50,924 nt of DNA from NCBI GenBank assembly GCA_025062245.1, contig JANXAD010000010.1, positions 1 to 50,924 of the forward strand, given 5' to 3'. Of this stretch, positions 24,129 through 48,346 are shown in pieces. This DNA comes from Thermodesulfobacteriaceae bacterium (GTDB lineage: Bacteria > Desulfobacterota > Thermodesulfobacteria > Thermodesulfobacteriales > Thermodesulfobacteriaceae). Each line of letters starts with the position of its first letter. The stretch's first letter is position 1. Under the pieces are notes generated by a model. That model was given only the letters and a program-made list of their open reading frames with translations, ran no database searches and was not told the origin of the DNA. The position numbers and the translations under genes are program-made.

Positions 24129-25073
24129 ATGAGTGGTTTAAAATATTCTGAATATCAATTGGAAAGGGAAAAAGAAGAAAAGATTCAACTTCTTCAAGAA
24201 ATAGCAAATTTCAAGAATGAAATAGAGCTTATTAAGGATTATCTTGAAGATTTACTTCACCATACTTCCGAAGGACTAAAGTTAACTTTTTTTCAGGAAG
24301 TAAAGGAAGCTCAAAAATGGTTAGATACTTTAGAGATTCCTAAAATTGAGGATTTGAGCATGGATACTGAACTTTCAATTTTAAGAAAAACCCATTCTCA
24401 ACTTAAAGAGATAGTTGAAAAGGGTCGAAAGATTCAAGAAGTTTTAACCTTTGCTTTTACTCAAAAGGCAGATGAAATGGGTAAAACCTTAACTAAAAAA
24501 TTAAACGATTTAAAACAGTTTTATTTTGAAAATTATAGAGTTTTAAAACTTTGGTGGGATGAAAAAAGTATAAATTACTGGAAGACAAAGATAGAAGAGG
24601 GTTATCAACTTTTAGAGGAAGAAAAATATGGAATTCTTTCTTTACTCCTTGATAAGCTATATGAAGAGTTAAAGGCTAAGGTTGAGTTTTCTAAACTTCA
24701 AGAGGAAAAACATCAAAAGAGGCTTTATCTTCTTAAAGCTTTAAGACAGGTTTGTAAAGATATGGGATTTGAAGAGATAGTGTCCCCACATTATGAAAAA
24801 GAGGGAGATCGGGGAAGTAGAATTTTATTTACTGTAGATACCTTTGATCGAGGAAAAATTGAATTTGCTATTTCTTTGGATAGTATAAATACCTTTTCAG
24901 AGGCTTCTGAAGATAAGTGTTTTGAAGAATTTGATCAGCTTTCTCAATTTTTAGAAGAGGAGTATGGGATCCGAACTGAATTTAAGTATGAAGATGGATT
25001 GAGACCTCCTAAGCTTATCAAAAAAGGAGAAATGGAACTCCCAGGAGATGCAGTAATAAAAATAGAGAAGTAA
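24129..25073 (+). CDS. Coiled-coil protein, first gene of the AAA+/GTPase system (function unknown)
   Basis: I do not recognise a named family. The 314-aa protein is largely helical: a heptad-rich, Glu/Lys-rich N-terminus (about 8-50), more helices to about 210, then a compact alpha/beta C-terminal domain (about 225-300) containing RILFTVDTFDRGKIEFAISLD and FSEASEDKCFEEFDQL. No membrane segment or signal is present. A strong AAGGAGG precedes the ATG. The next gene begins 18 bases later. By position it could be an adaptor or nucleotide-exchange-like partner (superficially GrpE-like in its coiled-coil plus small-domain layout) for the AAA+ protein; this is inference only. Confidence 0.75.
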   Translation: MSGLKYSEYQLEREKEEKIQLLQEIANFKNEIELIKDYLEDLLHHTSEGLKLTFFQEVKEAQKWLDTLEIPKIEDLSMDTELSILRKTHSQLKEIVEKGRKIQEVLTFAFTQKADEMGKTLTKKLNDLKQFYFENYRVLKLWWDEKSINYWKTKIEEGYQLLEEEKYGILSLLLDKLYEELKAKVEFSKLQEEKHQKRLYLLKALRQVCKDMGFEEIVSPHYEKEGDRGSRILFTVDTFDRGKIEFAISLDSINTFSEASEDKCFEEFDQLSQFLEEEYGIRTEFKYEDGLRPPKLIKKGEMELPGDAVIKIEK

Positions 25074-25091
25074 AAGTTAGGAGAAGTAGGT

Positions 25092-26948
25092 GTGGCGGTT
25101 TGGATTCGCAATTTAATTAGTAATTTAGAAAAAAAACCAGTTTTAATTTTACATGGAAATGTTCGTGATAAATATATTGATGAATATAAACGGGTTTATG
25201 ATAACCTAACCAGTCTGTTGAGAGAAGTCGCCCGTCAACTACCTATAAATTTTTATGAAATTTTATTTTATGATGCTGTTTCTAAGGAGCGTCGTGAAAC
25301 TTGGACTTCTAATTTTAAAATTCCTTCTCCCGATCCTAATCCAGATAGTGAACTTATGGAAACTGAACCTAAGATAGAAAAGAGTCCTTCAGAAAAAGAA
25401 AGAGGACTTCTTCGGCAAATAGAGCCTCCTTCCAGAGTTTTTTCAAAATGGAAACGTGAACTTTCCAGTTCAGATCAAAGCAAATTCGTGGTAGTCTTTT
25501 ACTTAGATAAATTAGTAACTTATAAACAAACTGGTTATACGGATGAGGAAAAACAAGTTCTTCTTTGGATGGAAAAGGTTATTGAAAATATTACTCCCAA
25601 TCATAGATTAATTTTAGTTGCTCTGCAAGATACTATGGTTCCTGTTGAACTTTACCTCAATTCACCTAAAACTTGTATTCTCTCTATTCCTATGCCAAAT
25701 AAATCTGATAGAATAGCCTATTTAAAGCACTGTTTGGGAGATAGTTATGAACACTTAGAACTTATTGCTGATCTAACAGATGGTCTTTTTCTTAGAGATT
25801 TAGATAACATTGCTAATGAAATAAAAAGTTATCCCAAATTAAGTACTCGTGAAGTAAGAAGGTTAGTAAATAAATATCGTCTTGGTGAGCAAGAAGACTA
25901 TTGGAGTCAATTAAGCATAGAAAAACTTAACAATGCGCTTCGTTGGTTTGTGGAAGAAGAAGGGGTTAAGGGTCAAGAAGAAGCTATAAGCAAAGTAATA
26001 GATGTGCTTTGTCTTGCTCGGGCAGGTTTATCGGGAGTTGCAAGTAATACAACTTCTAAACCTAAAGGAGTTCTATTCTTTGCAGGTTTAACAGGGGTGG
26101 GCAAAACTTTGGTAGCTAAAAAGCTGGCTAAATTTTTATTTGGAACAGAAGAAGCTTTTTTAAGATTTGACATGAGCGAATTTAAAGAAGAACACACGGT
26201 TTCTAAATTTATAGGCTCTCCTCCAGGATACGTAGGATATGAAAAAGGAGGTATGCTCACCAATGCTGTTCGTGAAAAGCCTTTTTCAGTTATCCTTTTT
26301 GATGAAATCGAAAAGGCCCATCCTAAGATTATGGATATTTTCTTACAAATTTTAGATGATGGACGTTTAACTGATAGTAGAGGACAAACGGTTTTCTTTA
26401 CAGAAACGGTTATTATTTTTACCTCTAATATAGGTACTCGAACTACAGACTCTCGTGGAGCACCTATAGATGAGCGGGAAAGGTTGGAAAAAATTATAAA
26501 TTCTAACTTAAAGGATGAAGAAAAAAAACAAAAAATTAGAGAACATTTTATAAGAGCAGTAGAACAATTTTTTATTTTCGAGATTTCCCGCCCAGAACTT
26601 TTAAACAGAATTGGAAATAACATAGTTCCCTTTAATTACATTCATACTCCTGAAGTTCAAATTCAAATTGTAGAAACCCATTTAAAAAGAATTAAAGAGG
26701 AATTTGAAGATAAATATCGCACTGCCTGCTATAAAGTAAATTTTGAAGAAAGCGTAGCTAAGTGGCTCGTAGAGAAATATGGAGAACAAATAACCATGTA
26801 TGGTGGACGGGGTATTACTAATGCCATAGAAAGTGAAATAATGATACCTTTAGCTAAAGCAGTACTTAGAGCCGAACATAATAATGAACGAAATTTAAGA
26901 TTTGTAGTAACTGTTTTTAACCAAGGAATAAAAGTAGTTTTAAAATAA
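25092..26948 (+). CDS. ClpB/ClpA-like AAA+ ATPase with a degenerate first module
   Basis: A 618-aa protein. The C-terminal half is a Clp D2-type AAA+ module: Walker A GLTGVGKT (about 332-339), pore-loop region GSPPGYVGYEKGG, Walker B SVILFDEIEKAHP (about 398-410), sensor-1 IIFTSNIG, arginine-finger segment SRPELLNRI (about 498), and a sensor-2-like GGRGI in the D2-small domain. The N-terminal half (about 1-270) resembles an AAA module (KPVLILHGNVRDKY, FVVVFYLDKL, RLILVALQDTM) but lacks a Walker A. There is no ClpB N-domain or M-domain. A GTG start follows TTAGGAGA. It is likely the energy-dependent remodeller of the system; a proteolytic partner is not encoded nearby. Confidence 0.88.
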   Translation: MAVWIRNLISNLEKKPVLILHGNVRDKYIDEYKRVYDNLTSLLREVARQLPINFYEILFYDAVSKERRETWTSNFKIPSPDPNPDSELMETEPKIEKSPSEKERGLLRQIEPPSRVFSKWKRELSSSDQSKFVVVFYLDKLVTYKQTGYTDEEKQVLLWMEKVIENITPNHRLILVALQDTMVPVELYLNSPKTCILSIPMPNKSDRIAYLKHCLGDSYEHLELIADLTDGLFLRDLDNIANEIKSYPKLSTREVRRLVNKYRLGEQEDYWSQLSIEKLNNALRWFVEEEGVKGQEEAISKVIDVLCLARAGLSGVASNTTSKPKGVLFFAGLTGVGKTLVAKKLAKFLFGTEEAFLRFDMSEFKEEHTVSKFIGSPPGYVGYEKGGMLTNAVREKPFSVILFDEIEKAHPKIMDIFLQILDDGRLTDSRGQTVFFTETVIIFTSNIGTRTTDSRGAPIDERERLEKIINSNLKDEEKKQKIREHFIRAVEQFFIFEISRPELLNRIGNNIVPFNYIHTPEVQIQIVETHLKRIKEEFEDKYRTACYKVNFEESVAKWLVEKYGEQITMYGGRGITNAIESEIMIPLAKAVLRAEHNNERNLRFVVTVFNQGIKVVLK

Positions 26949-26954
26949 TTTAAC

Positions 26955-28073
26955 ATGGCTCTTATCCAAATAAAAGGAAAACTTGAGATAAAAGGAATCA
27001 AAAAAGTTATTTTTATTTTAGATACTTCTGAAAGTGCTTATTCATATTGGAACGAAATTGCTTCTCTTACCAGTCAGTTAATTGCTCTCTTGCCTAAGGA
27101 TATGGAAGGCGAACTCTATTTTTTAGGGAATTCTAATCCAATTGAAATTTCACAATTTGATAAATTAACTTCTCAATTTTTTGAAGAAAATCTTAATCGC
27201 ATAAGCCTTATTACTCCCATTTTTGAAAAACTTTCACAAAAAGAAGATATTTTTAATATTTTAATCATAGGTTCTGGGAAAATTTTCGATCTTGAGGACT
27301 GGGCAGACTCTCATTTATTAAAACAAACCCTTTTGATAAGTGTAAAAGATTCTTTACAGGGTGAATTATCCTTAGCAGATGAAATTTCCTATCCGACAGC
27401 TCAACAGATTTATACCTACCTATATGATCCTATTATTGAGGTGGAAATTTCTGGAAAAGGTTTTATGCCGCTTAAATGGTCAAATGGAGGATATTCTTTA
27501 AATATAATAGAAGGAAAGGCTTACTTAACAGCCAGCAAATTAGACAATTATTTTATTAATTTAGAATATTTGATAACTTCGGATTTTTCCCCTCAAGCCA
27601 AGCTTACCTATGCCAGTGGCCAAAAAATTATAAAACCCATTCAAAATCTTGAGATAGTTGAGATGAAAGAGGAAGATTTAAATTTAATCTCTTTAACTTC
27701 AGAGGAGGAGGAAATATTCAAAAAAGCTATTTTTAAAAAACCCTTCCTTTGTATCCACTGTAAAAAAACTCATGAGTGGAATACCCTTTATTGTTTGAAT
27801 ACTTCTTCTATCCTGGGAGAACCTATCTATCCTTCTTTAAATAATTATAAAATAAGTGGTTTCGTTCTTTTTTATCAGAAAGATGAAAAAGTGTACTTTC
27901 AAGATTACCCCTTTAATCTTTTAAAGATTGATGAAAATACTGTAGCTTTTCGAGAGGGAAGAAGAGCTGTATTATATAAATATAGCGAAAAAGAAGATAT
28001 GTGGATAGCTACTTCTCACACTTTAGACCCTTACTCTAAAATAAAGGAAGGGGTTTATGCAGTGGTTTTTTGA
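26955..28073 (+). CDS. vWA-like protein with zinc-knuckle segment
   Basis: A 372-aa protein. The N-terminal part (about 14-150) has a Rossmann-like pattern beginning VIFILDTSESAYSYW; D23-T-S25-E-S27 fits the DxSxS of a metal-ion-dependent adhesion site, followed by helix/strand alternation (IFNILIIGSGKIFD). I therefore call it von Willebrand A-like. The middle is beta-rich. C266-IH-C269, H273 and C280 could bind zinc. The C-terminus is another beta-rich domain. vWA proteins commonly partner AAA+ ATPases, which fits the preceding gene. Its last 17 bases overlap the next gene. No secretion signal is present. Confidence 0.62.
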   Translation: MALIQIKGKLEIKGIKKVIFILDTSESAYSYWNEIASLTSQLIALLPKDMEGELYFLGNSNPIEISQFDKLTSQFFEENLNRISLITPIFEKLSQKEDIFNILIIGSGKIFDLEDWADSHLLKQTLLISVKDSLQGELSLADEISYPTAQQIYTYLYDPIIEVEISGKGFMPLKWSNGGYSLNIIEGKAYLTASKLDNYFINLEYLITSDFSPQAKLTYASGQKIIKPIQNLEIVEMKEEDLNLISLTSEEEEIFKKAIFKKPFLCIHCKKTHEWNTLYCLNTSSILGEPIYPSLNNYKISGFVLFYQKDEKVYFQDYPFNLLKIDENTVAFREGRRAVLYKYSEKEDMWIATSHTLDPYSKIKEGVYAVVF

Positions 28074-28695
28074 TAAAACGGGGTTTCCTCTTTTCTATGT
28101 TTCTGGAATACAAGTTCAACTTTTACCCATTACTAAGGTGCAATTTGAGAAATTCTTAGTTGAATCTAAGGAATTTGGAGATAGTTGGTATGCGAATCTC
28201 TTAAATATTAATCCAAGAGTTTCTTATAAAACCTTTACTTCTGAAAATCGGGAAGGAATATTTATCACAGGGCTTTTGCCTTCAGAAATTAATTTTTTTA
28301 TAAAGTGGATGGGAAACGGTTTTAGATTAGCTAATCTTAGAGAGTGGAGAAAAATTTATCATGAATTAAAGAAAATTCCTTTAAAAAGAGAGAGGTTAGA
28401 AAATCTTCTTTTCCAAGTTAAATCTAAACCAGCTAAAACGATTATAGAAAGACTATTAGAGCAACTTAACTATGAAATACTTTATAGGGAAGCTCGGAGA
28501 GAATTAAATTGGGCTGATATAACCCTTATGCATTATGGTTTAGTGGAATGGGTAAAAGAAGAAGGAAGTTATGTTGGGGTGGGTGCCCCTCGTCCTTCTT
28601 TTTATCCTAATCTGTGGGAACCTCTAAAAGATATGGTTAAACCTTTAAAGGAAAATGAAAGATTGTTTTACTTTGGTTTTAGGTTAATAAGATAA
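28057..28695 (+). CDS. FGE-sulfatase/C-type-lectin-like domain protein, cysteine-free
   Basis: A 212-aa protein whose landmarks follow the formylglycine-generating-enzyme fold: LLPITKVQFEKFL (usually PVTxxxYxxF), GLLPSEINFFIKWMGNGFRLANLREWRK (usually VSWxDAxxYCxWLGKRLPTEAEWE), YGLVEWVKE (usually GNVWEW), and the terminal FYFGFRLIR (usually GFRLVR). The protein contains no cysteine at all, so FGE-type oxidation is excluded. It is probably a ligand- or protein-binding version, as in many FGE-like domains of conflict systems. It starts inside the vWA-like gene. Confidence 0.72.
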   Translation: MQWFFDKTGFPLFYVSGIQVQLLPITKVQFEKFLVESKEFGDSWYANLLNINPRVSYKTFTSENREGIFITGLLPSEINFFIKWMGNGFRLANLREWRKIYHELKKIPLKRERLENLLFQVKSKPAKTIIERLLEQLNYEILYREARRELNWADITLMHYGLVEWVKEEGSYVGVGAPRPSFYPNLWEPLKDMVKPLKENERLFYFGFRLIR

Positions 28696-28716
28696 TTTTT
28701 GAGGAGGTTAGAAAGG

Positions 28717-30369
28717 GTGAGTAAAATTGTAGTAGGGCAGCAGATTTATGCTAATGTAGAGAAAGAACAATCTCCCCAAAGGATAGCAGGTTTTCAAACC
28801 CTCTTTTACTCTCGTTCCTTTCTTTCAGAAGAGGAAGTAGAAGAAATAGAGCGAAGATTGGTTTACTTTCCCTCAGAAAAGGATTATCTTAAAAGAATTT
28901 TTTTTGTGACCTCCACAAACAAATATGTTTTAGCTCAAATTGTACCTTTGCCTGAACCAGATCAGTTAGGAAGAAAGGGAAGATATTTAGCTCATGTCTT
29001 AATTCTTAAGGAAGAAGATTTTCTCAACCATAAATTAAATCCTTGGGTAATATTTCAAAAATTTTATTTTGTAAAAACCTTAGAGGAAGCTTTAAAGTTA
29101 GGAAACTTTGAAACAGGGGATCTTCCCAGTATGACTATTGATTTAGTTGAGTTTTCTGAGAATTTAAAAATAGACTTTTCTCTGTTTGAAGGCGAAAATT
29201 TTAAAAAATTAGCCTTACTTGCCTTTCGTGGAAAAGAACTTATGAATCAACGTAAAACAGTGGTCTTTTTAGGAGAACCTCAAGAGGTAGAACTTGCTCT
29301 TAAATTAGCTACCTTTGTGGTTCCTACTCCACTTCTGAAATATTGTACTTTTGACACCTATTTTTATCGCTGTAATCTCGTATCTACCTATTACTGGGGT
29401 ATAGGGCTTTTTGATTCCCCCAGTAAACCTAATCTCATAATAGTAAAAGTAAACTCTGGAGAAGTTCTAAGTGAATTAGAGCGAAATCCTGAAAATGCTT
29501 ATGAAAGATGGATTCTAAAAGAACTGGATCGGAGAAACTTCCATACTATAGGTTCTTATAAAGATTCTGCCTTTATTTTAACAGAATGGCTTGATGGAAA
29601 GATACCCACTTCTCCCTCACTTAATCAGATTTCTCCAGAAATCATTCCTTCCATTTTTGAAGCTAACTCCGAAAAAGTTTGGTCTAAGATATCAGATAAA
29701 ATTTTAGAAAAATTTCCTTCTCCTTTAGCCAGCAAAGTAGTTACTCCTCTTTTTAAAAGTTACTCTTCTTTAAAACTTTTCAAGAAATTGCAAGAGGGCT
29801 TTTCTTATGAAGAAATACTAGACCTACTTCTTGAAATCTATGCCTCTCAAAATTACACTTCTCCACCTCAGTCAGAACTTAAAACCTTAGGAGAAGTTTT
29901 AAATACAGTGGATTACCATTTACTAAAGTTATTTTATCTATGTTGGAAAAAGGAATATAAAGAACTAAGTAAATTCTTAGAAAAATTAGAAGATAGTGAA
30001 TACACCAAATTTTTAGAAAGAGCCTTAAAATACGACTTAATTAACCCGGCCTATCTTGTAGTTCCTAAGAAGGGTAAACTATTTTTAAAACTTTATCTTT
30101 CTGAAGAGATTCCCCAAAAAAGAGATTGGCTATCCTTAGTTAAAGCCTTATTAGAAGCTAAGGAAGGAGAGACTCTTGATTTATTAACTCCTTACATTGG
30201 TCAGTGGTCTCCTCAGGTAATAAAAAAGGTTAAAGATTTGATAATAGAGAAACCGGAAGTTCCCCCCTCTTTTAGAGAGGCTATTAATAAAGTAGCTGCT
30301 CGTATACACCTTGAAGAAGAAAGAGGAATAAAGGGGTGGTTAAAATCCATCTTAGAAAAAATTAGGTAA
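28717..30369 (+). CDS. GAP1-like GTPase-associated protein (GAP1-N2 type N-terminal domain)
   Basis: About 550 aa. The N-terminal hundred residues (VVGQQIYANVEKEQSPQRIAGFQTLFYSRSF, then LGRKGRYLAHVLIL) match the pattern of the GAP1-N2 domain, defined computationally in proteins linked to predicted GTPases. The rest is helical and probably a repeat or middle domain; it contains no obvious catalytic motif. The GTG at 28717 is chosen as start because GAGGAGG lies at 28701-28707; an in-frame TTG at 28699 precedes that ribosome-binding site and is rejected. In the wider family GAP1 proteins are thought to pair with the system GTPase, here three genes downstream of this position in order GAP1, radical SAM, GTPase. 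Confidence 0.72.
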   Translation: MSKIVVGQQIYANVEKEQSPQRIAGFQTLFYSRSFLSEEEVEEIERRLVYFPSEKDYLKRIFFVTSTNKYVLAQIVPLPEPDQLGRKGRYLAHVLILKEEDFLNHKLNPWVIFQKFYFVKTLEEALKLGNFETGDLPSMTIDLVEFSENLKIDFSLFEGENFKKLALLAFRGKELMNQRKTVVFLGEPQEVELALKLATFVVPTPLLKYCTFDTYFYRCNLVSTYYWGIGLFDSPSKPNLIIVKVNSGEVLSELERNPENAYERWILKELDRRNFHTIGSYKDSAFILTEWLDGKIPTSPSLNQISPEIIPSIFEANSEKVWSKISDKILEKFPSPLASKVVTPLFKSYSSLKLFKKLQEGFSYEEILDLLLEIYASQNYTSPPQSELKTLGEVLNTVDYHLLKLFYLCWKKEYKELSKFLEKLEDSEYTKFLERALKYDLINPAYLVVPKKGKLFLKLYLSEEIPQKRDWLSLVKALLEAKEGETLDLLTPYIGQWSPQVIKKVKDLIIEKPEVPPSFREAINKVAARIHLEEERGIKGWLKSILEKIR

Positions 30370-30377
30370 AAAATTTT

Positions 30378-30986
30378 ATGTTAGAAGAAAGGGTTTACCT
30401 TAATATAGGTGCTATTCAAGAGCGTTCTATAGCTAATGGTCCTGGGGAAAGGTTTGTATTATGGCTTCAAGGATGCCTTCTAAATTGTCCTGGATGCATA
30501 AATCCTGAGTTTCAACCCTTAGTAAAGAGAGTGATTTTAAGCGTAGAAGAGGTGTTTGAAAGGATAACCAAGGTTAAGGGAATTGAAGGAGTTACTTTTA
30601 CCGGTGGAGAACCTATGCTTCAAGCTAAAGCTTTAGCTTTACTAAGTGAAAAACTCAAAAAAACAGGTCTAACCCTTATGTGTTATACCGGATACACCTT
30701 AGAGGAACTAAAAACTTTCAACAATTACTGGATTGAAAAACTCTTATCTAATTTAGATATTTTAATAGATGGTCCTTTTATTTTGGAGAAAAAGGCTTCC
30801 TTGCCTTGGAGAGGAAGTAGTAATCAAAGGGTTTATTTTTTGACTCCCACCTATCAACATCTTCAAAAATTTGTAGAATCTCCCCTAAGGGAAATAGAAT
30901 TTATAGTAGATAGTAAGGGTTTTTTAGTTACAGGGGTAAGCTTTGAAGAATTACTTCTTAAATTAAGAGAAACTTTAAAGAGGTGA
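30378..30986 (+). CDS. NrdG-like radical SAM activase-type protein
   Basis: A 202-aa minimal radical SAM protein. GPGERFVLWLQGC leads into the cluster motif C33-LLN-C37-PG-C40; FTGGEPMLQ (about 73-81) is the SAM-binding GGE region. The layout resembles activating enzymes of anaerobic ribonucleotide reductase. No glycyl-radical enzyme lies in the window, so an NrdG role is unlikely here; modification of a protein or small molecule within this operon is the natural inference. The gene lies 8 bases after the GAP1-like gene and abuts the GTPase gene. Confidence 0.85.
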   Translation: MLEERVYLNIGAIQERSIANGPGERFVLWLQGCLLNCPGCINPEFQPLVKRVILSVEEVFERITKVKGIEGVTFTGGEPMLQAKALALLSEKLKKTGLTLMCYTGYTLEELKTFNNYWIEKLLSNLDILIDGPFILEKKASLPWRGSSNQRVYFLTPTYQHLQKFVESPLREIEFIVDSKGFLVTGVSFEELLLKLRETLKR

Positions 30987-30994
30987 TTAAAGGC

Positions 30995-31957
30995 ATGCTT
31001 TGTCCTTTTTGTTTATTAGAAGTAGTGTTTCAAGAAAATATAGAGGGAAGTAAAGTATCTTACATCTGTCCAGAGTGTAAAGAAGCTATACCAGTTTTAT
31101 ATGTTCAAGAATATAAAAGATATCCTCCTGTAGTAGTTAATGCTATAGGGTTTCGTGGACATGGGAAGACTGTTTATTTTGCGACTCTTTTTTACGCATT
31201 GAGAAAACAACAGCTAAGTAGATTTTGGAAAGGATTCCACACTATGTGTCTTAATGAAGAAAGTTTAGAGATCGTTCAAAATAATGTAAATATGTTGGAA
31301 GAGGGATTCCTTCCTGAGTCAACTCCTAAAAATTTTCCTCGTCCTACTATCGTAAGATTACAAGGAATACCTACCTATCCTAATCGCACCTTATTATTTT
31401 ATGATACCAGTGGGGAAGCCTTTGAAAAGGCTTCTCAATTAGTTCAATTTGCAAGTTTTGTTAAAAGAGCTCAAAAGGTTTTATTTTTATTAAGTATAAG
31501 TGATATGGAAGATATTGGAATGGAAATGCATAATTTACTTAATACCTATATTATTGGAATGAGCGATCTTGGAGGGCAGACTAAAAATCAGGAATTAGTG
31601 GTAGTTTATACTAAAGCAGATAAAATTAGCAACTATTTAAGTAAGTTTTCCAATATTCTGGAGTATTTAAGAGAAGGCACCGTGGATGGACTTTCAAATA
31701 TTAAGGACTATCATAAAAAAATGCGAGAAATCTCTGAAGAACTCTATAACTTTACTCGAAAGGTTTTAAATGCTCACGAATTTCTAAATGCAGCGGAGGT
31801 TCATTTTAAGGCCGTAAATTTTTGTATTATTTCAGCTCTTGGGGCTAATCCTCAAGGAGATAGGTTAGCTGTGGCTATTACTCCCAGAAGAATTTTTGAT
31901 CCCCTTTTTTGGCTAATGGGAGGAGTTACTCCTTGGTGGAAAAAATTGTGGAGGTAA
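30995..31957 (+). CDS. Zinc-ribbon P-loop GTPase (DO-GTPase-like)
   Basis: About 320 aa from the ATG at 30995. An N-terminal zinc ribbon uses C3/C6 and C25/C28. The GTPase domain has P-loop GFRGHGKT (52-59), a DTSGE switch-II-type motif (137-141), TKAD (206-209) as the NKxD equivalent, and ISALG as a possible G5. The end, RRIFDPLFWLMGGVTPWWKKLW, is amphipathic or membrane-leaning. It resembles the double-GTPase-associated families described with GAP1. The upstream in-frame GTG at 30983 lies within the likely Shine-Dalgarno AGAGGTGA (about 30979-30986), so the ATG is preferred. Probably the central switch of the system. Confidence 0.8.
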   Translation: MLCPFCLLEVVFQENIEGSKVSYICPECKEAIPVLYVQEYKRYPPVVVNAIGFRGHGKTVYFATLFYALRKQQLSRFWKGFHTMCLNEESLEIVQNNVNMLEEGFLPESTPKNFPRPTIVRLQGIPTYPNRTLLFYDTSGEAFEKASQLVQFASFVKRAQKVLFLLSISDMEDIGMEMHNLLNTYIIGMSDLGGQTKNQELVVVYTKADKISNYLSKFSNILEYLREGTVDGLSNIKDYHKKMREISEELYNFTRKVLNAHEFLNAAEVHFKAVNFCIISALGANPQGDRLAVAITPRRIFDPLFWLMGGVTPWWKKLWR

Positions 31958-31960
31958 AGG

Positions 31961-33505
31961 TTGGTTTTCTTAGGTAAGATAGATGACTCGTGGGAAAATA
32001 TTATTTGGAGAGAATGGAGAAACTGTGAAGACAGAATTTATGCTCAAAAACTCTTTGAATTGGTAGCAGAAAAACCCGTTAAAGTTCCCCTCATGTTTAT
32101 CTTGATAATCATAATAGGTTTCTATTTTGGCTTAATAGGTGGCCTTCTCACAGGAAATTTGGTAATCAACAGTAAACTTCTTTTTTATCCAGAGAAGTGG
32201 CAATTAGTGTGGGATATAAAATTTATTTTAGGAGGTATATTAACAGGAATAGGTTTAGGACTTTTGCTTTGGGTTTTAACTCTTAATCTTTGGACTTGGA
32301 GACATTTTCTATCCTTTATGATTCCTAAGGTTGACCCCTCAGTTCTTTTTATAGGACCTATTATAGTTGGAATTATTTATGCTTTTTTTTACGGACCCTT
32401 TATTAAAATAGAAACCAATTTTTTAAACCTTTTTAATTTTAATTTGGCTAATCCTCTTTTAGGAAGTTTATTTGGTGGACTCTTTGGGGTGTTAATGGGA
32501 GGAATGGTTATTGGACTGGTTTATGGAACTTTGGGAGGTCTATGTGGGGGAATTATTATAGAACTATTTTCTTCCCTTTCAGGATACACACCTTTTAGTA
32601 AAATTTCAGAAGAACTAAGGGGAGGTTTAGTTTTAGGAGTAGTCTTTGAATTCTTTTTTGGTCTTACCTTAGGAGTTTTTTATCTTCTTTGGACTTGGAT
32701 TAGTAAAGGGGAAAACCTTAAGTGGATAGACTATGGTAGAAGTTTATGGGTGTGGTGGAGAAAAAGACCCATGCTTTCTGAAGTAGAAAAGGCTCTTCAT
32801 AGGGCTTGGAGTAAAGAATGGATTCAAACCCTTTTTTTACTTGAAAAAAATAAAAGGGAGTTTTTAACCCCAGAACTTCTTATCTCTAATTTGGAAAGTG
32901 AAAATTGGCAAGAAAGATTTATGGCTAGACATTTACTTTTATACTTGGGAGGAGAAGGAATAAATTTGTTGGTAAAAAGATTATCCCATCCATCCTCGGT
33001 TAAAAATACTATTCTTCATCTTTTAAAAAGTATTGCCTATGAAACAGAAGAAAGGCTTGCTTCTAAGGCTAACTGGTTAATATGTCCCAAGTGTATGGTT
33101 CATTTAGGAGCTAATCAAATTAGATTAGACAAAAAGGTTGTTATAACCTTTTATGGATGTCGTTCCTGTTATCAAAGTAGAAATTTCTATAACTTTAGAG
33201 ATAATAAAATTGTTATGATACTTGATCGTGAATTAGAAGAAGAAAAAATTTTAGAAGATAAAATTTTAAGGATTAACTGGTTTAAACATAAAGAATTGTT
33301 TGATTTTGATTGGATTGAAATTTTTCAAGCCTCCGATGAAGAGGTGGAACGTTTTTGTATACACATAGGGAATGACGGAGATTTAATAAGAAGAAAAAAG
33401 TATAAAAAAATACCCTGTTTTATTAGAAAGGAGTGTGAACTTAAAGAGGAAACCATTAATATGCTAAGAAATATTTTTAAAGAAGTAGTATTTAAGGAAT
33501 TTTAA
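31961..33505 (+). CDS. Multispanning membrane protein with helical repeats and C-terminal zinc ribbon
   Basis: A 514-aa protein of no family I can name. About six to seven hydrophobic, glycine-rich segments lie between residues 45 and 245 (for example MFILIIIIGFYFGLIGGLL, LFGGLFGVLMGGMVIGLVYG). A cytosolic region follows, with a HEAT-like helical pair (NWQERFMARHLLLYLGGEGINLLVKRL, about 320-350). CPKC and CRSC form a zinc ribbon at about 377-407. The C-terminal domain (about 415-514) is alpha/beta. The TTG start at 31961 is supported by GGAGGT at 31950-31955. As last gene of the operon and the only integral membrane protein, it is the best effector or receptor candidate. Its end overlaps the convergent permease gene by 4 bases. 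Confidence 0.72.
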   Translation: MVFLGKIDDSWENIIWREWRNCEDRIYAQKLFELVAEKPVKVPLMFILIIIIGFYFGLIGGLLTGNLVINSKLLFYPEKWQLVWDIKFILGGILTGIGLGLLLWVLTLNLWTWRHFLSFMIPKVDPSVLFIGPIIVGIIYAFFYGPFIKIETNFLNLFNFNLANPLLGSLFGGLFGVLMGGMVIGLVYGTLGGLCGGIIIELFSSLSGYTPFSKISEELRGGLVLGVVFEFFFGLTLGVFYLLWTWISKGENLKWIDYGRSLWVWWRKRPMLSEVEKALHRAWSKEWIQTLFLLEKNKREFLTPELLISNLESENWQERFMARHLLLYLGGEGINLLVKRLSHPSSVKNTILHLLKSIAYETEERLASKANWLICPKCMVHLGANQIRLDKKVVITFYGCRSCYQSRNFYNFRDNKIVMILDRELEEEKILEDKILRINWFKHKELFDFDWIEIFQASDEEVERFCIHIGNDGDLIRRKKYKKIPCFIRKECELKEETINMLRNIFKEVVFKEF

Positions 33506-40131: not shown

Positions 40132-42231
40132 TTATTTCGTTATTGGATTGAATAAATATCTAAGTTGCAAATTAGCTTGAATACTTCTTCCTGGATGAAT
40201 CCAAATAAATTCTGTTTCATATTTTCGGTCAAAAAGATTGTCTACACTTAGAGAAAGGGTCATAAGAAGATTAGGAGAAAGTTTAAAGTCCTTCCAAACT
40301 TTAGCATTTAAGACTTGATAAGAATCCATGTGATAGTAAGGAAGTTTAGTATTGTCATCATCGTAAAATCTACTTCCAGAAAACCGGTAAGAAATATAAG
40401 CATTAAACCAACGAGGATTATCATAAACTAAGCCTACACTTCCCCAATAATCAGGAGAATTTCTTAACTGATTTCCCTCTCTTGTTGGATCATCAGTAAT
40501 TCTGGCACGATTTAAAGTTAGACTTCCAAAGAGATTGAGACCTTTCCCTAAAGCTTTCTTAATCATAAATTCTACGCCATAAATCTTAGCTCCTCCGAGA
40601 TTTTCAGTTCTAACTATATTAACTCCAGGAAGGGTAGGGTGGGGATCATATCTATAGGATACAGTATCCTTTATCTTACCATAGTAGGGTGTAATAGAAA
40701 GAAAGGTATCCCATTTTTTCAAATTAAGTTCTATTCCAAAATCAATCATCCAAGTCTTTTCAGGTTTTAAATTAGGATTAGCTTCTCTCCAAGTTTTTCC
40801 ACTTCTCACATTTTGAAAAAACCAAATAGGTAATCCTGGCCAAAAACCTGTTCCAGCAGAGGCTTTAAAGGAAACTTTTTCAGAAAACTTATATCTAACA
40901 CCGCCTCTATAGGTAGTTTTTTCCTTAGTGATACTTTTGGGTCTCTGAGGAGTAGAAATGAGGTCAAAGATGTTATGATACCTCCAGTGATCATATCTTA
41001 GGCCTGCTAAAAAAATTAGTTTTTCATTTAAAAGAAACCACTGATCTTGTAAATAAAAGGAAGTTTGGTCTGTGGTGTATTTGCTCTCACTGGTTGCCCT
41101 TCCTGTAGCCTCGCTAATGGTTTTTCTTTCCTCCCGGTCTCTTAACCAGGATAATCCCAAGGTAGTAAGGTGATTTTTTAAAAAAGTTAAGTCAGCTTGT
41201 AATTCCAGAGGAAATCTTTCCTGTTTCCACTCTGATCTGGTAAAGGGAGTTTTATCCCATCTTAGGGTTCCATTAACCAATTGAGGCCCTCTGTCTTCTT
41301 TGCCAGGGCGATTAAGATGTTGATATCCTAAATACCCTGTAAGTTTTACCTTATCAAATAAGGTGGTATACAATCTTAAGTTTAAAACTCCTTCTTCTCC
41401 ATCATCTATCCAAACTCTATTAGGTCTTCCTCCATAAAGATAAAGACCCTGATAATGGTAACCTATCCAAGCTCCTGTCCCTTTTTTATCGTCATATCCT
41501 ACCTTGGTGTTAAAAAAGTTTTGTCTGTAATGATTATCTCGCAAAGAGGCATAACTTAACCAACCAGTTTTTCCTGCTTGATAGAGAGTCCAGACCACAT
41601 TAAAAGGATTCATTTTATATCCATCTGAAAAATCTCCAGAATAGGAGATATAGTAATGAAAGTTTTTAAATTCATTTCCTATCTCTATATGAGGACGAAA
41701 GGTATTCCTTGAACCATATCCGAGATCCAGTTTTATTCCAGTGTCCTTAGTTCCTTTTTTGGTTATAATGTTTACTACCCCTCCCATAGCATTAGGACCA
41801 TAGAGAGCTGAAGAGGGTCCAAGTAAAACTTCTATCCTTTCTATGTCATTAGGATGAACAGGAGTTGAAAGAAAGGGGGTTACAGGTATGCTATCTACTA
41901 AATAAAGGGTTCTTCCTATAAAGTATCCTGTTCCTCTTAAGTGAATCCAAGAGGGTCCCCATGGAAAGTACTGCCCCACATGAACTCCAGGTAAATCTTT
42001 TATAAGTTCTCCTAAGTTTTGAATAAAGTAGGTAGGTTGTTTTTCAATTTCTTTTTTTTCCACAATATGAACAGTTACAGGCAGATTTTCAGCTTTACTT
42101 TCCGTTCGGGTTCCTGTGACTACAACTTCTTTTATCTCTTCTTGATTTTCTTTGGCAAGGGTAAGGTCAGTGGTTAATAAAGCTAAAAAATTAAAAAAGA
42201 CTAAAGATTTGACCAAAAGATCCTTTTTCAT
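40132..42231 (-). CDS. TonB-dependent outer-membrane receptor 1
   Basis: A 699-aa receptor with signal peptide (LVFFNFLALLTTDLTLA), a TonB-box-like EEIKEVVVTGTR (about 30-41), and a plug domain (about 45-160) with IERIEVLLGPSSALYGPNAMGGVVNIITKKG. A 22-strand-type barrel follows and ends near NLFDRKYETEFIWIHPGRSIQANLQLRYLF. It imports a metal complex or other large ligand using TonB energy; specificity cannot be read directly. It is divergent from receptor 2 across a 180-base promoter region. The plug is rich in aromatic residues (GQYFPWGPSWIHLRGTGYF). Confidence 0.93.
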   Translation of the reverse strand: MKKDLLVKSLVFFNFLALLTTDLTLAKENQEEIKEVVVTGTRTESKAENLPVTVHIVEKKEIEKQPTYFIQNLGELIKDLPGVHVGQYFPWGPSWIHLRGTGYFIGRTLYLVDSIPVTPFLSTPVHPNDIERIEVLLGPSSALYGPNAMGGVVNIITKKGTKDTGIKLDLGYGSRNTFRPHIEIGNEFKNFHYYISYSGDFSDGYKMNPFNVVWTLYQAGKTGWLSYASLRDNHYRQNFFNTKVGYDDKKGTGAWIGYHYQGLYLYGGRPNRVWIDDGEEGVLNLRLYTTLFDKVKLTGYLGYQHLNRPGKEDRGPQLVNGTLRWDKTPFTRSEWKQERFPLELQADLTFLKNHLTTLGLSWLRDREERKTISEATGRATSESKYTTDQTSFYLQDQWFLLNEKLIFLAGLRYDHWRYHNIFDLISTPQRPKSITKEKTTYRGGVRYKFSEKVSFKASAGTGFWPGLPIWFFQNVRSGKTWREANPNLKPEKTWMIDFGIELNLKKWDTFLSITPYYGKIKDTVSYRYDPHPTLPGVNIVRTENLGGAKIYGVEFMIKKALGKGLNLFGSLTLNRARITDDPTREGNQLRNSPDYWGSVGLVYDNPRWFNAYISYRFSGSRFYDDDNTKLPYYHMDSYQVLNAKVWKDFKLSPNLLMTLSLSVDNLFDRKYETEFIWIHPGRSIQANLQLRYLFNPITK

Positions 42232-42277
42232 AATGGACTCCCTTTTTAAATAATACTTTTTAAATTTTTGATTTTTG

Positions 42278-42305
42278 ATTATATAATAAAAATATAAAAA
42301 GTCAA
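42278..42305 (-). promoter_or_regulatory. Promoter of receptor 1
   Basis: Minus-strand TTGACT (42300-42305), 16-base spacer, perfect TATAAT (42278-42283), 46 bases upstream of the start codon. No Fur-like or NikR-like palindrome was recognised near it. Confidence 0.65.
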
Positions 42306-42354
42306 TACTTTTAATTTAATTTTTTTAAATTTTTAAAAACAAATTATAACTCTA

Positions 42355-42382
42355 TTGACAAAATTAAATTTTTAAGTTATAA
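42355..42382 (+). promoter_or_regulatory. Promoter of receptor 2, sharing sequence with the receptor 3 promoter
   Basis: Perfect TTGACA (42355-42360), 16-base spacer, TTATAA (42377-42382). From -35 through -10 and a few bases beyond it differs from the receptor 3 promoter (46209-46236) at only a few positions. Confidence 0.65.
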
Positions 42383-42413
42383 AAATAAAAAAAATAATAT
42401 TAAAGGAGGAGAG

Positions 42414-44381
42414 ATGTTTAAAAAGTCTTTTAAAAAAATTATAATTTTAAAAATGGTAATAAATTCAATCTTAATAAATTCTATTTCTGCTGAGGAGATT
42501 AAAACAGAACTTGAAGAAGTAGTAGTATCAGCTACTAAAACGGAAAGAGAAGTAAGGGAGGTTCCTACTAACATTACAATTTTAACAGAGGAAGAGATTA
42601 AAAAATATGATGCCAAGGATATTTCTGAGTTATTAAGACAGATTCCAGGATTTAATATTTTAGCTTTTGGCAGTATTCATGCAGATAATCAAGTGAGTAG
42701 TAGAGGTAATCGCCCAGTAGCCGTAAATGTTCAAGTTTTAGTTAATGGAGTTGAATATAATAATCCAACAGGATATTTTAATGTTTTAGCTATTCCTATA
42801 GGAGATATTGAAAGGATTGAAATAATTAAAAGTCCTGTCTCTTCTCTTTATGGGAATTTTGCTACAGATGGTGTAATTAACATAGTTACTAAAAAACCCA
42901 AAAAACCTATAGAATGTATAGTAAATCTTTCTTATGGAATTTTTGATACTCAAAGGCATGCTGTAGTGGTAAAGGGCCTTTTAAATAAGGTGGAATTCTA
43001 TGGAGAAGGTAGATTTTATAAAACTCAGGGATGGCAAGATAATAGTTGGGAAGAAAATAAGCTATTTAATACTATGCTTAAGTATTATTTAGACAATTCA
43101 AGTATCTTAGGATTACACTTTAACTATGCACCTATAAAGAATGGTTACCCTGGTCCTTTAACAAAAGTTCAATTTAAAGAGCATCCAAGACAAACAACCC
43201 AACCTTGGGGAGAAGCTAAATCCTATACTTGGTTTTTAGCACCCTATTTTGAAAAAAATTTTAAAAACTCTAAACTGCTCTTAAAAGCAAGATACGCATT
43301 TCAAGATGGATGGGTTATAGATCCAGATTATTTTGAATTACGTAATACTCTAGTTACACCCGAAATAAATTATTATATTTTGCACAAATTTGGAAATATT
43401 GAGGGGATATTCCTTGTGGGTGCAGATTATCGTTATATAAATTCTTCTAGATTGAGAATGTATACATATAATCCAGAAAGAAGACAAAGAGAAAGTTTAT
43501 TATTGAATAGAAAAATAAAAGACCGATTTACTGGTTTATTTATTCAAGAGGAGTTAAAACCATTAAAAACTATAAATTTTAATATAGGATTGAGATATGA
43601 TGAAATTAAAACAGAGGTTAAGGATTTAATTAATCCTGCTCGTAATTTTGACAAGAAATACTCTATTCTAAGTCCCAGAGTAGGATTAACCTATAGTTTT
43701 AAAGATAGGTATAACCTATTTATGAGTTATTCACGAGGTTTTAGAACACCTCCACGTGGCTTTGTAAGAAATCCAGATTTAAAACCTGAAAAAATTCACT
43801 CCTACGAAATAGGAATAAGAGGATATGCAAATTTTTGGTTAAATTACAACATAGCCTTATTTCTTATAGATACTACTGATGAAATAATAGCGATAGGTGG
43901 TCCAAGGGCACGTGAAAATGCAGGTAAGAGTCGTTCTAAGGGTATTGAAGTAGATTTAAGCTTTACTTTCCGAAACGGTTTTTATGGTTCATTAAATTAT
44001 ACCTATCAAGAATCTAAGTTTAAAAAATATAAAACCTTAGCTGGTATCTCCTATAAAGATAAAGAGATTCCCTTGGTACCTAAACATTTATTGGGTATAG
44101 GTTTAGGATATAAAGCAAACTGGTTTGGTAACTTTATTGTAACGGCCAATTATTCAAGTAAGAGATATACTGACAGAGAAAATACTGGAGTACTTGGGGA
44201 CTATTTAATAATTGATGCCAAATATACCAAACAGATAGGAAAAAATTTTGAAATCTTTTTTTCAGGCAAAAATTTAACAGATAAGAGATATGCCGAAGTA
44301 GGGTTTGGTAGTGGGGAAGATGTCATACTTTATCCTATGCCTGGATTTAGTGTTTTAGGTGGAGTTAATTTCTATTTTTAA
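42414..44381 (+). CDS. TonB-dependent outer-membrane receptor 2
   Basis: A 655-aa receptor. A short signal-like N-terminus (IILKMVINSILINSISA) precedes the TonB-box-like TELEEVVVSATKTE. The plug (about 35-150) has IGDIERIEIIKSPVSSLYGNFATDGVINIVTKKP. The barrel ends with GKNLTDKRYAEVGFG and the terminal aromatic F. A downstream DUF4198 protein starts 25 bases after its stop, so they probably share a transcript. DUF4198 proteins are linked to nickel/cobalt uptake, which makes a metal or metallophore a plausible ligand. AAAGGAGG precedes the ATG. Confidence 0.92.
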   Translation: MFKKSFKKIIILKMVINSILINSISAEEIKTELEEVVVSATKTEREVREVPTNITILTEEEIKKYDAKDISELLRQIPGFNILAFGSIHADNQVSSRGNRPVAVNVQVLVNGVEYNNPTGYFNVLAIPIGDIERIEIIKSPVSSLYGNFATDGVINIVTKKPKKPIECIVNLSYGIFDTQRHAVVVKGLLNKVEFYGEGRFYKTQGWQDNSWEENKLFNTMLKYYLDNSSILGLHFNYAPIKNGYPGPLTKVQFKEHPRQTTQPWGEAKSYTWFLAPYFEKNFKNSKLLLKARYAFQDGWVIDPDYFELRNTLVTPEINYYILHKFGNIEGIFLVGADYRYINSSRLRMYTYNPERRQRESLLLNRKIKDRFTGLFIQEELKPLKTINFNIGLRYDEIKTEVKDLINPARNFDKKYSILSPRVGLTYSFKDRYNLFMSYSRGFRTPPRGFVRNPDLKPEKIHSYEIGIRGYANFWLNYNIALFLIDTTDEIIAIGGPRARENAGKSRSKGIEVDLSFTFRNGFYGSLNYTYQESKFKKYKTLAGISYKDKEIPLVPKHLLGIGLGYKANWFGNFIVTANYSSKRYTDRENTGVLGDYLIIDAKYTKQIGKNFEIFFSGKNLTDKRYAEVGFGSGEDVILYPMPGFSVLGGVNFYF

Positions 44382-44406
44382 AACTTTTAGAGCTGGAGGT
44401 TCTATT

Positions 44407-45258
44407 ATGAAGAGATTTAAAAATTTATTTTTGTTTTTGATAGTTATTATATTTTTATGCCTTAACAATAACTCTTCTGCTCACGATAGATGGTTAGTCC
44501 CTTCTAAACCTCTGATTAAAATAGGAGAGGAGGCAAGGATTGAATTTTGTGTAGGTCATGGTTTTGAAAGTGAAGCAGCTCCAAGTGAATGGTGGTTAAC
44601 TAAATTTTATTCCATAGATCCTCAGGGAAATATAAAGGAAATTAATTTTACCTATGATAAAGAAAAACAAAAAAGTGCAGTAGGAAGTTTTAAACCAAAT
44701 AAAAAAGGAACTTACATGGTTTATTCAGTTGCTGAAAAGATTTATTGGGTTAAAACGAAAGACGGAAGATATCTTCAATTTAAAGACCAAATTGACTTGG
44801 ATCCTTCTTTAATAAAGAGAACTTACATAGGATGGCAATATAGTAAGACCTATTTTAAAGTGAACCGCTCAGGTGGAGAAGGTTATAAGAAGTTAATGAA
44901 TAGCCTTATAGAGTTGGTTCCTCTTAATGACCCCACAGATTTAAAAGTAGGAGACTATCTAACTTTGAAGATTTTAACTGAAGGTAAAGTTCCCAAGTGG
45001 AATATAGGGATAATAGCCTTATATAAAGGATATCCCGGAGGTTTGTGGTCCTATAATTACTTTATGGAGTATCCTGGAGAGTTTTATGCTAAAGAAGGAA
45101 TAGATAAGGAACCTGTGGTTAAAATTCCTATAACTCACCGAGGCTATTGGTTTATCAAAGCCTTTAGATTGATGGACAAAGAAATTCTTTGCGAAGGAAA
45201 ATACGGAAATCATGATGCCTATTTTTTTGAATTTACCCTAACTTTTTATGTTCCTTGA
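44407..45258 (+). CDS. Secreted DUF4198-family protein, metal-uptake associated
   Basis: A 283-aa periplasmic protein. The signal peptide (RFKNLFLFLIVIIFLCLNNNSSA) would be cleaved to leave an N-terminal HDRW, a conserved feature of DUF4198 and a possible metal ligand. The body is two beta-sandwich-like halves (PLIKIGEEARIEFCVGHGFESEA; DLKVGDYLTLKILTEGKVPKW) and ends with a region containing GYWFIKAFRLMDKE. The family is found with nickel/cobalt ECF-type and TonB systems. The ATG at 44407 is chosen because GGAGGT lies at 44395-44400; an upstream in-frame ATG at 44359 overlaps receptor 2 and would bury the signal peptide. Confidence 0.82.
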   Translation: MKRFKNLFLFLIVIIFLCLNNNSSAHDRWLVPSKPLIKIGEEARIEFCVGHGFESEAAPSEWWLTKFYSIDPQGNIKEINFTYDKEKQKSAVGSFKPNKKGTYMVYSVAEKIYWVKTKDGRYLQFKDQIDLDPSLIKRTYIGWQYSKTYFKVNRSGGEGYKKLMNSLIELVPLNDPTDLKVGDYLTLKILTEGKVPKWNIGIIALYKGYPGGLWSYNYFMEYPGEFYAKEGIDKEPVVKIPITHRGYWFIKAFRLMDKEILCEGKYGNHDAYFFEFTLTFYVP

Positions 45259-45261
45259 GGT

Positions 45262-45541
45262 ATTTTTTAATAAAGCTAAAGATTTAGCCTATTTTGAAGA
45301 AACAAACAAAAAGGTGGCTCTAATAAGAAACTATAAAAAATGGCTTCCAAGTGTTTGAATCAGGTAGAGAAACCGATATTTTTAAATGCTTTACTTAAGG
45401 AAAGTTTAAGAACAGATAAGGAAGGATTGGCTCAAATATCTATTAAAACTACTAAGTAGAACTATTAAGGTCCATCTTGAAAATGACCCCGAAGGGAAGG
45501 TCCTTTATCTTAGAGCTTCCTTAAGTTTTATCAAAAATTAA
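45262..45541 (+). pseudogene. Remnant of a second DUF4198-type protein
   Basis: Broken frames keep recognisable DUF4198 C-terminal text: SLRTDKEGLAQISIK, stops, then IKVHLENDPEGKVLYLRASLSFIKN ending in a TAA at 45539-45541. The family pattern is TDxxGxAxxxxxxAGxWxxxVxH...YxxxLTF. The N-terminal half is missing or unrecognisable. Confidence 0.7.
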
Positions 45542-45966
45542 GGTTTCAACTTTGAAAGTAAAGATAAAAAGGGGAGGTTATTTAAAAATTAAAAATTTAA
45601 ATCCCAATTTCGAAACCTTTGCTCATGAAGTAAACTATCAAGTTATAAAGTCTCAAGGAATTATGAGCTATGCAGAAGTGGAAGTCTATTTTTTTGAGGA
45701 AAAATAGTTTTTCAGAAGGCCAAAACAGATAAAAATGGAATATTTTGCTTTATGCCGGATAAACCGGGAGTTTGGAAAGTAATAGCTAAGGGAGAAACAG
45801 AACACGGACTTCACGGAACAGAGGTAGAAATTAAGTTGGAAAAAGATATGAGGGTTGAGGGTTTTAAAAAACCTTTAGTTGCAAGGTATACCAAAATTTT
45901 TATAGCCTTAGGAGTCTGAGATGGGTTTTAGGTCTTACAGGCATTTATCTTTATTTTAGAAAATAG
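45542..45966 (+). pseudogene. Frameshifted NikL-like periplasmic/membrane protein remnant
   Basis: The frame reads KSQGIMSYAEVEVYFFEEK then a stop; shifting by one base continues IVFQKAKTDKNGIFCF, MPDKPGVWKVIAKGETEHGLH and VARYTKIFIALGV; a second one-base loss near 45919 precedes WVLGLTGIYLYFRK and a TAG at 45964. This is a carboxypeptidase-regulatory-like domain plus one C-terminal helix, the layout of NikL-type nickel-uptake components. Two single-base deletions, one in an A-run, would account for the breaks. Confidence 0.6.
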
Positions 45967-46208
45967 TTGAGGTTTTAAGACTTTTTAAAATTTGTGTAAA
46001 ACTTTTTTCAAGGAGCACTCAAAAGGTTTAATTATTTTTTCGCTTGAAAATTAAAAAAGTTTCAACAAAAAGGGAAAAAATTTGGGAAGTGCCTCTTTAA
46101 GTTTTCTAATTGTTTTTTTTAAAGTTCTCAAAATTTCTTATTGATTTTTTAAATTGAAGAGAAGCTTTGATATCAATGTTTTCATAGGCTTTAAATGGTA
46201 AAAAAATG
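45967..46208. other. Upstream region of receptor 3
   Basis: AT-rich non-coding DNA without a recognisable gene. A 10-base perfect palindrome TTGATATCAA lies at 46167-46176, about 35 bases upstream of the -35 box; it could be an operator but nothing more supports this. Confidence 0.35.
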
Positions 46209-46236
46209 TTGACAAAATTTAGTTTTTAAGTTATAA
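46209..46236 (+). promoter_or_regulatory. Promoter of receptor 3-binding protein-methyltransferase operon
   Basis: Perfect TTGACA (46209-46214), 16-base spacer, TTATAA (46231-46236), 35 bases before the start codon. It is closely similar to the promoter of receptor 2. Confidence 0.7.
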
Positions 46237-46271
46237 AAATTTTTTAAAAGTATTATTAAGGAGGTAAAAAA

Positions 46272-48335: not shown

Positions 48336-48346
48336 AGTTTTTCAAA

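What the first reader, a model, noticed from the sequence alone, without database searches (positions are those of the whole stretch)
30378..30986. NrdG-like radical SAM enzyme placed inside a GTPase/AAA+ operon without a glycyl-radical partner
The CX3CX2C motif and GGEP are intact, so the enzyme looks active. No NrdD, PFL or similar target is encoded here. Its overlap with the GTPase gene suggests that the target is a component of this system or a nucleotide-like signal.
Basis: inference. Interest (0 to 1): 0.65.

Follow-up and report, generated by a model that had tools for sequence, protein, structure and literature searches.

The report
Radical-SAM enzyme in a bacterial conflict system
The gene makes a small radical-chemistry enzyme of the family that normally switches on anaerobic ribonucleotide reductase, but here it belongs to a mobile three-gene set (coiled-coil protein, protein-unfolding motor, radical enzyme) that bacteria plug into several different defence-like systems; it probably modifies one of its own partner proteins.

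Summary
In detail: 30378-30986 encodes an intact NrdG-like radical SAM protein (CX3CX2C, GGEP, confident fold) inside an eight-gene GTPase/AAA+ operon. The claimed overlap with the GTPase gene is probably a start-codon artefact. The enzyme recurs beside DO-GTPase genes in other phyla, but its constant partners are not the GTPase. It belongs to a conserved triad: a coiled-coil protein (24129-25073), a ClpB-D2-like AAA+ (25092-26948) and this enzyme. I found the triad in 25 loci with four partner sets: DO-GTPase (5), Mokosh-like helicase plus PIN nuclease (13), FHA/PP2C/kinase (4), kinase-helicase (3). Seven of 13 triad genomes tested outside the genus encode neither NrdD nor any Gly_radical protein, so glycyl-radical activation is not the general function. 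In the window's genus NrdD is common; its absence from this draft genome may be incompleteness, and that route stays open for one relative (G005). All 25 coiled-coil proteins carry a cysteine at the start of their last C-terminal-domain helix, though register shifts. Best model: the enzyme modifies the coiled-coil partner there, with the AAA+ presenting it. The substrate is inferred, not shown. I found no description of the triad in the papers searched.

The parts
24129..25073 (+). CC: coiled-coil protein (314 aa) with a small alpha/beta C-terminal domain carrying Cys264 (codon 24918-24920); constant partner in the triad
   Evidence: No Pfam family above cut-off; alignments A2/A6 with CC proteins of other triads; Cys motif in 25/25; AlphaFold model low to moderate, pLDDT 64, C-terminal domain about 70-79
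25092..26948 (+). ClpB-D2-like AAA+ ATPase (618 aa) with Walker A/B, GYVG pore loop, arginine-finger region and GGRG sensor 2, plus an N-terminal half that may be an inactive AAA domain; constant partner
   Evidence: PF07724 E=1.5e-52; 34-41% identity to AAA+ proteins directly 5' of radical SAM homologues on plasmids; motifs
26955..28073 (+). vWA-like protein with a DTSES MIDAS-type motif; variable component, seen only here and in relative G005
   Evidence: No Pfam match at E<=0.1; motif; no HMM match in other loci; assignment by motif only
28057..28695 (+). 212-aa protein of unknown family; variable component, seen only here and in G005
   Evidence: No Pfam family above cut-off; no HMM match elsewhere
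28699..30369 (+). GAP1-N2-like protein (556 aa)
   Evidence: PF20013 E=1.7e-4, 22.0 bits, just under the 24-bit cut-off; aligns with the L053 and L056 proteins, which score 62.5 and 53.5 bits
30378..30986 (+). NrdG-like radical SAM enzyme (the finding), 202 aa, with a 52-aa C-terminal tail after the GSxNQ motif that the four NrdG references lack
30995..31957 (+). DO-GTPase2-type GTPase with N-terminal zinc ribbon; start more likely ATG 30995 than GTG 30983
   Evidence: PF19993 35.3 bits against a 27-bit cut-off; P-loop GFRGHGKT, Walker B DTSGE, TKAD, two CXXC; start codon
31961..33505 (+). Membrane protein (514 aa) with several hydrophobic segments and a zinc-ribbon-like region; variable component
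   Evidence: Weak Pfam Zn_ribbon_10 only; ortholog only in G005; hydrophobic segments by eye

Best explanation
The gene is the radical SAM member of a conserved, mobile triad: a coiled-coil protein (CC), a ClpB-D2-like AAA+ and an NrdG-like radical SAM enzyme. The triad is attached to different sensor/effector modules of bacterial conflict systems, here a DO-GTPase/GAP1-N2 module with vWA-like and membrane proteins. Most likely mechanism: the AAA+ remodels or threads CC, and the radical SAM enzyme abstracts a hydrogen from a peptide of the C-terminal domain of CC, at or near the cysteine that starts its last helix (Cys264 here). The resulting modification or stored radical sets the adaptor so that it gates the switch (GTPase or kinase) and the effector. 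Shown: the enzyme's sequence is intact; the triad is conserved across phyla; CC and AAA+ are its only constant partners; known glycyl-radical targets are missing in about half of the triad genomes tested; the cysteine motif is in all 25 CC proteins. Inferred: that CC is the substrate, that the cysteine is the site, the role of the AAA+, and the defence function.
For: Triads found with the enzyme as query. Reciprocal test: searching with the AAA+ instead gave three new loci in Desulfobacterota and four inspected new plasmid loci. All seven hold the radical SAM gene, one (L150) only as a short frame. Partner modules are nucleic-acid or signalling proteins: Mokosh MkoA-like SF1 helicase with PIN, DUF4011 helicase-nuclease PDC-S37 with FHA, PP2C and kinases, DO-GTPase with or without GAP1. 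Seven triad genomes lack NrdD and Gly_radical. The tail after GSxNQ is 42-79 aa in the triad, Ycf46-type and DUF1257-type enzymes, 52 here, against 8-29 in true NrdG. The cysteine motif is in 25/25 CC proteins and 11/11 lineage representatives; random placement of each protein's own cysteines gives a mean of 5 and never more than 13 of 25 in 2000 trials, and four CC proteins have no other cysteine. The AAA+ has no invariant cysteine. At least 42 of the 80 sampled radical SAM loci have a AAA+ gene of one of two families nearby.
Against: No direct evidence of modification. With cysteines masked the aligner puts only 15 of 25 in one column; the cysteine-glycine distance varies. The motif pattern was drawn up after seeing the sequences, so the random trial overstates it. 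Calothrix has a CC-like domain without the cysteine, though with a different AAA+ type. The triad enzymes are not one clade (AU p=8e-5), so the enzyme was exchanged or recruited repeatedly. The CC fold gave no significant structural match.
Confidence: 0.4

Rival explanations
1. The enzyme modifies the AAA+ itself rather than CC.
For: The AAA+ is the other constant partner; NrdG-like enzymes of this family also sit beside a different AAA+ family (Ycf46-like) in about 33 of 80 sampled loci, so a AAA+ is the widest common denominator.
Against: The AAA+ has no invariant cysteine; its invariant residues are mostly the usual ATPase motifs.
Confidence: 0.17
2. The enzyme makes a nucleotide-like signal or chain terminator, as viperins do.
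For: Weak PADLOC pVip matches (E=2.8e-6); QueE and viperin follow PFL-activating enzyme in the fold search; the setting is a conflict system.
Against: PFL-activating enzyme is much nearer (E=1.1e-9 against 4.5e-3 for a viperin-like enzyme); the viperin NCBIfam score is 18 bits against a cut-off of 180; no nucleotide kinase or signal sensor is a constant partner.
Confidence: 0.13
3. The enzyme modifies a variable peptide or effector of each system, as eLife 2020 (PMC7159879) proposes for the radical SAM gene of FtsH ternary systems.
For: Precedent in related systems.
Against: No small peptide gene was seen to be shared by the triad loci, and the variable components differ between the four contexts. 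Short ORFs under 60 aa were not compared systematically.
Confidence: 0.13
4. It is simply an NrdG that serves class III ribonucleotide reductase.
For: Family resemblance. Grouping window and G005 copies with true NrdGs is not rejected and even fits better (AU p=0.85, lnL +25.7). NrdD is in 13 of 14 genus genomes. G005 has NrdD, this operon and no NrdG2 over the cut-off.
Against: Twelve of the 13 NrdD-bearing genus genomes have NrdG2, and none of those 12 has a close copy of this enzyme. Triads occur in genomes without NrdD. Score under the NrdG cut-off; extra tail; conserved operon with CC and AAA+ genes, not nrdD.
Confidence: 0.08
5. The radical SAM gene is a passenger without a role in the system.
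For: Triad enzymes are polyphyletic.
Against: Intact motifs in nearly all copies, repeated tight spacing or overlap with the AAA+ gene in other triads, and presence in every inspected locus found through the AAA+.
Confidence: 0.04

Closest known systems
GTPase-centric conflict systems, GAP1-N2 type (Kaur et al., eLife 2020, PMC7159879)
   Same: DO-GTPase2 with zinc ribbon and Walker B glutamate, GAP1-N2-like protein, vWA-like and membrane components in one operon
   Different: The paper's text on these systems mentions no radical SAM, ClpB-like AAA+ or CC protein; no FNIII-repeat protein was found here; GAP1-N2 scores just under the Pfam cut-off
FtsH ternary systems (same paper)
   Same: A radical SAM gene beside a AAA+ protein whose N-terminal AAA domain is inactive (here only suspected), in a conflict system
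   Different: There the AAA+ is FtsH-type with MoxR and vWA, and the radical SAM is called Memo/Ammecr1-type; here the AAA+ is ClpB-D2-like and the radical SAM NrdG-like
NrdG, class III ribonucleotide reductase activase (TIGR02491)
   Same: Family, CX3CX2C, GGEP, DGxF and WRGSxNQ motifs
   Different: Under the curated cut-off, 52-aa tail after the NQ motif, no NrdD partner in the operon; triad relatives occur in genomes without any NrdD
Mokosh anti-phage defence (MkoA/MkoB)
   Same: In other genomes the triad lies next to MkoA-like SF1 helicases
   Different: No helicase or kinase in the window's operon; in most triad loci the helicase pairs with a PIN protein
Ycf46-type AAA+ / DUF1257 (Ycf35) / NrdG-like gene clusters
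   Same: NrdG-like radical SAM of the same subfamily beside a AAA+ gene
   Different: Different AAA+ family; DUF1257 could not be linked to the CC C-terminal domain (hhalign probability under 1%)

Membership tests
NrdG (class III RNR activase) | Curated score cut-off of TIGR02491 (126.1 bits) | tested here: not met
   109.3 bits; a true NrdG scores 154.2
NrdG (class III RNR activase) | Cluster motif CX3CX2C and GGE/DP | tested here: met
   C33, C37, C40; GGEP 76-79
NrdG (class III RNR activase) | Partner NrdD encoded in the same genome | tested here: inconclusive
   None in this 93%-complete MAG, but present in 13 of 14 genus genomes including G005; absent from 8 of 13 triad genomes elsewhere
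NrdG (class III RNR activase) | Short chain ending soon after the GSxNQ motif | tested here: not met
   52 aa after NQ against 8-29 in four NrdGs encoded with NrdD
NrdG (class III RNR activase) | Installs a glycyl radical in NrdD | not testable with these tools
   Needs biochemistry
DO-GTPase2 (GAP1-N2 type conflict systems) | Pfam PF19993 over its gathering score | tested here: met
   35.3 bits against 27
DO-GTPase2 (GAP1-N2 type conflict systems) | Glutamate in Walker B and N-terminal zinc ribbon | tested here: met
   DTSGE; CPFC/CPEC
GAP1-N2 protein | Pfam PF20013 over its gathering score | tested here: inconclusive
   22.0 bits against 24; aligns with the L053/L056 proteins that pass it
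GAP1-N2 type conflict systems | FNIII-repeat protein in the operon | tested here: not met
   No fn3 family at E<=0.1 among the eight proteins
Viperin-like antiviral radical SAM | Curated cut-off of NF038283 (180 bits) | tested here: not met
   18.0 bits
Mokosh | MkoA helicase and MkoB in the operon | tested here: not met
   None among the five operon proteins scanned against PADLOC, and no helicase or kinase family above cut-off in any of the eight
ClpB disaggregase | Two active AAA domains and curated cut-off TIGR03346 (1232 bits) | tested here: not met
   258 bits, match confined to the D2 region

The most novel reading that the evidence does not exclude
A family of radical SAM enzymes related to glycyl-radical activases arms a AAA+/coiled-coil adaptor by placing a radical-derived modification or a stored, possibly oxygen-sensitive, radical on a conserved peptide around one cysteine. 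Bacteria use this as an interchangeable trigger in several immune systems (GTPase-, helicase/nuclease- and kinase-based).
Probability: 0.22. Interest if true: 0.88.

Novelty: new variant of a known kind. Interest (0 to 1): 0.6.

Why it matters
NrdG-like proteins are usually read as ribonucleotide reductase activators. Showing that a set of them travels with a AAA+ motor and a coiled-coil adaptor across phyla and between unrelated defence-like systems would point to a shared, untested activation chemistry. It also names one partner protein and one residue to examine.

Tried and rejected
1) Overlap with the GTPase gene as evidence of coupling: rejected (start codon). 2) CC C-terminal domain as a DUF1257/Ycf35 domain, which would unify the triad with the Ycf46 clusters: hhalign probability under 1%. 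3) Fold of CC: model pLDDT 64, best PDB match E=0.17, no conclusion. 4) Triad enzymes as one clade: rejected by AU test, p=8e-5. 5) Absence of NrdD from the genome as proof: withdrawn after finding NrdD in 13 of 14 genus genomes. 6) Viral contigs: no relative of the enzyme. 7) GAP1-N2 on plasmids: no match. 8) FGE-sulfatase-like nature of the 212-aa protein and vWA nature of the 372-aa protein: no Pfam support; the second is kept only as a motif-level guess.

Full report
OBSERVATION. It is a Fer4_12/Radical_SAM protein whose best NCBIfam match is NrdG, below the curated cut-off. The cluster motif, GGEP and the NrdG-type DGxF...WRGSxNQ stretch are intact. A 46-sequence AlphaFold model is confident, and Foldseek puts PFL-activating enzyme first, then QueE. 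The gene sits between a GAP1-N2-like gene and a DO-GTPase2 gene in an eight-gene co-directional run, 24129-33505. The four-base overlap with the GTPase gene is probably not real: the ATG at 30995 has a good ribosome-binding site, and the same start is used in the relative G005.

OWN GENOME AND GENUS. The genome is a 1.63-Mb draft, 93% complete. It has no NrdD, no Gly_radical protein, a ribonucleotide reductase of another class (PF02867) and one NrdG2-type activase elsewhere. In the genus only G005 was found to share the operon, gene for gene, at 76% identity for this enzyme, in a different chromosomal setting. However, NrdD occurs in 13 of 14 genus genomes including G005, so its absence here may be a gap in the assembly. 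NrdG2 is in 13 of 14 but not found in G005. The genus pattern therefore does not by itself exclude an NrdD role in G005; the wider comparison does the work.

THE TRIAD. Homologues of the enzyme on proteobacterial plasmids lie directly after a AAA+ gene that matches the window's AAA+ at 34-41% identity (E about 1e-100), and before it lies a gene related to the window's first ORF. In the last two the neighbours include DO-GTPase2 and GAP1-N2 proteins over their Pfam cut-offs; in Geminocystis a DO-GTPase2 gene follows the enzyme on the same plasmid. Searching in the other direction, with the AAA+ profile in 395 Desulfobacterota genomes, only four matches stood above the ClpB background, G000 and three others; all three others carry the enzyme in the same operon, with FHA, PP2C and (in two) kinase genes. 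With the AAA+ on plasmids, four newly inspected loci (Rhizobium C104, Rhizobium Ta9k, Caballeronia, Aristaeella) all carry the enzyme gene, in C104 only as a short 126-aa frame. By contrast, three Desulfobacterota GAP1-N2/DO-GTPase loci have no triad. The constant unit is thus CC, AAA+ and the enzyme; the GTPase module is one of four settings: DO-GTPase 5, helicase+PIN 13, FHA/PP2C/kinase 4, kinase-helicase 3 (tallied). These counts are of inspected loci and include near relatives.

NOT A GLYCYL-RADICAL ACTIVASE IN GENERAL. Of 13 triad genomes outside the window's genus, eight lack NrdD and seven lack both NrdD and Gly_radical; several are drafts. The triad, Ycf46-type and DUF1257-type enzymes have 42-79 residues after the GSxNQ motif (52 here); four NrdGs encoded with NrdD have 8-29. 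The tree of the 200-residue domain is too weak to separate the window's copy from true NrdG (AU p=0.85), but it rejects one clade for all triad enzymes (p=8e-5). This suggests repeated exchange of the enzyme within a stable CC/AAA+ framework, or repeated origins.

CANDIDATE SUBSTRATE. CC proteins are very divergent (13-21% identity between the window's and the other groups). Two features are nearly universal: a glycine after the helix that leads into the sheet, and a cysteine at the start of the last helix. The cysteine motif occurs in all 25 proteins and 11 of 11 lineage representatives; it is the only cysteine in four of them. Shuffling each protein's own cysteines gives a mean of 5 hits and a maximum of 13 of 25 in 2000 trials, but the pattern was chosen after inspection, and with cysteines masked the aligner unites only 15 of 25 in one column because the helix length varies. 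One CC-like protein that goes with another AAA+ type (Calothrix) lacks it. I therefore treat the cysteine as a lead and not as a demonstrated site.

MECHANISM. From established knowledge of the families: PFL-activating enzyme and NrdG use a 5'-deoxyadenosyl radical to take a hydrogen from a peptide of a large partner protein; ClpB-type D2 domains thread or remodel proteins; DO-GTPase/GAP1 systems are proposed conflict switches (PMC7159879). Putting these together with the constant triad, I propose that the enzyme modifies CC, helped by the AAA+, to set a switch. The rivals (AAA+ as target, nucleotide product, variable effector as target, NrdD, passenger) are listed with their probabilities.

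NOVELTY. PMC7159879 describes DO-GTPase/GAP1 systems and, separately, a radical SAM gene in FtsH ternary systems, but its text on GAP1-N2 systems does not mention a radical SAM gene. Ten literature searches gave no description of the CC/AAA+/NrdG-like triad; most subscription papers and preprints are outside that library. I rate it a new variant of a known kind.

Noticed in passing
L162 4745-7019 (-); L159 4172-6420 (+); genus genomes: Class III ribonucleotide reductase looks split in this genus: the NrdD ORF (686-699 aa) ends without the glycyl-radical domain, and a separate ORF of about 58 aa with its own ribosome-binding site carries the RVVGY loop. Most genus members show the same separate PF13597 533-560 match.
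   Followed up: partly
G001, G004, G007, G008, G013: NrdD open frames of 1033-1205 aa with a break in the PF13597 match (near position 157 in several), suggesting in-frame inserts such as inteins.
   Followed up: no
L049, L052, L054, L060, L075, L084, L085 and others: A second large group: NrdG-like radical SAM of the same subfamily beside a Ycf46-like AAA+, usually with a protein with a helix-hairpin-helix-like C-terminus and a DUF1257-related protein, in Bacillota, Gastranaerophilales and others.
   Followed up: partly
window 12890-13906 (-): A second radical SAM protein in the window, by eye an AmmeMemoRadiSam-type enzyme, well outside the operon.
   Followed up: no
window 40132-50211: Cluster of three TonB-dependent-receptor-like genes with a periplasmic-binding-protein-like gene and a methyltransferase-like gene, by eye a metal or cofactor uptake locus.
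   Followed up: no
L150 10809-11186: The radical SAM reading frame of the Rhizobium sp. C104 triad is short (126 aa), so this copy may be broken while CC and AAA+ remain.
   Followed up: no
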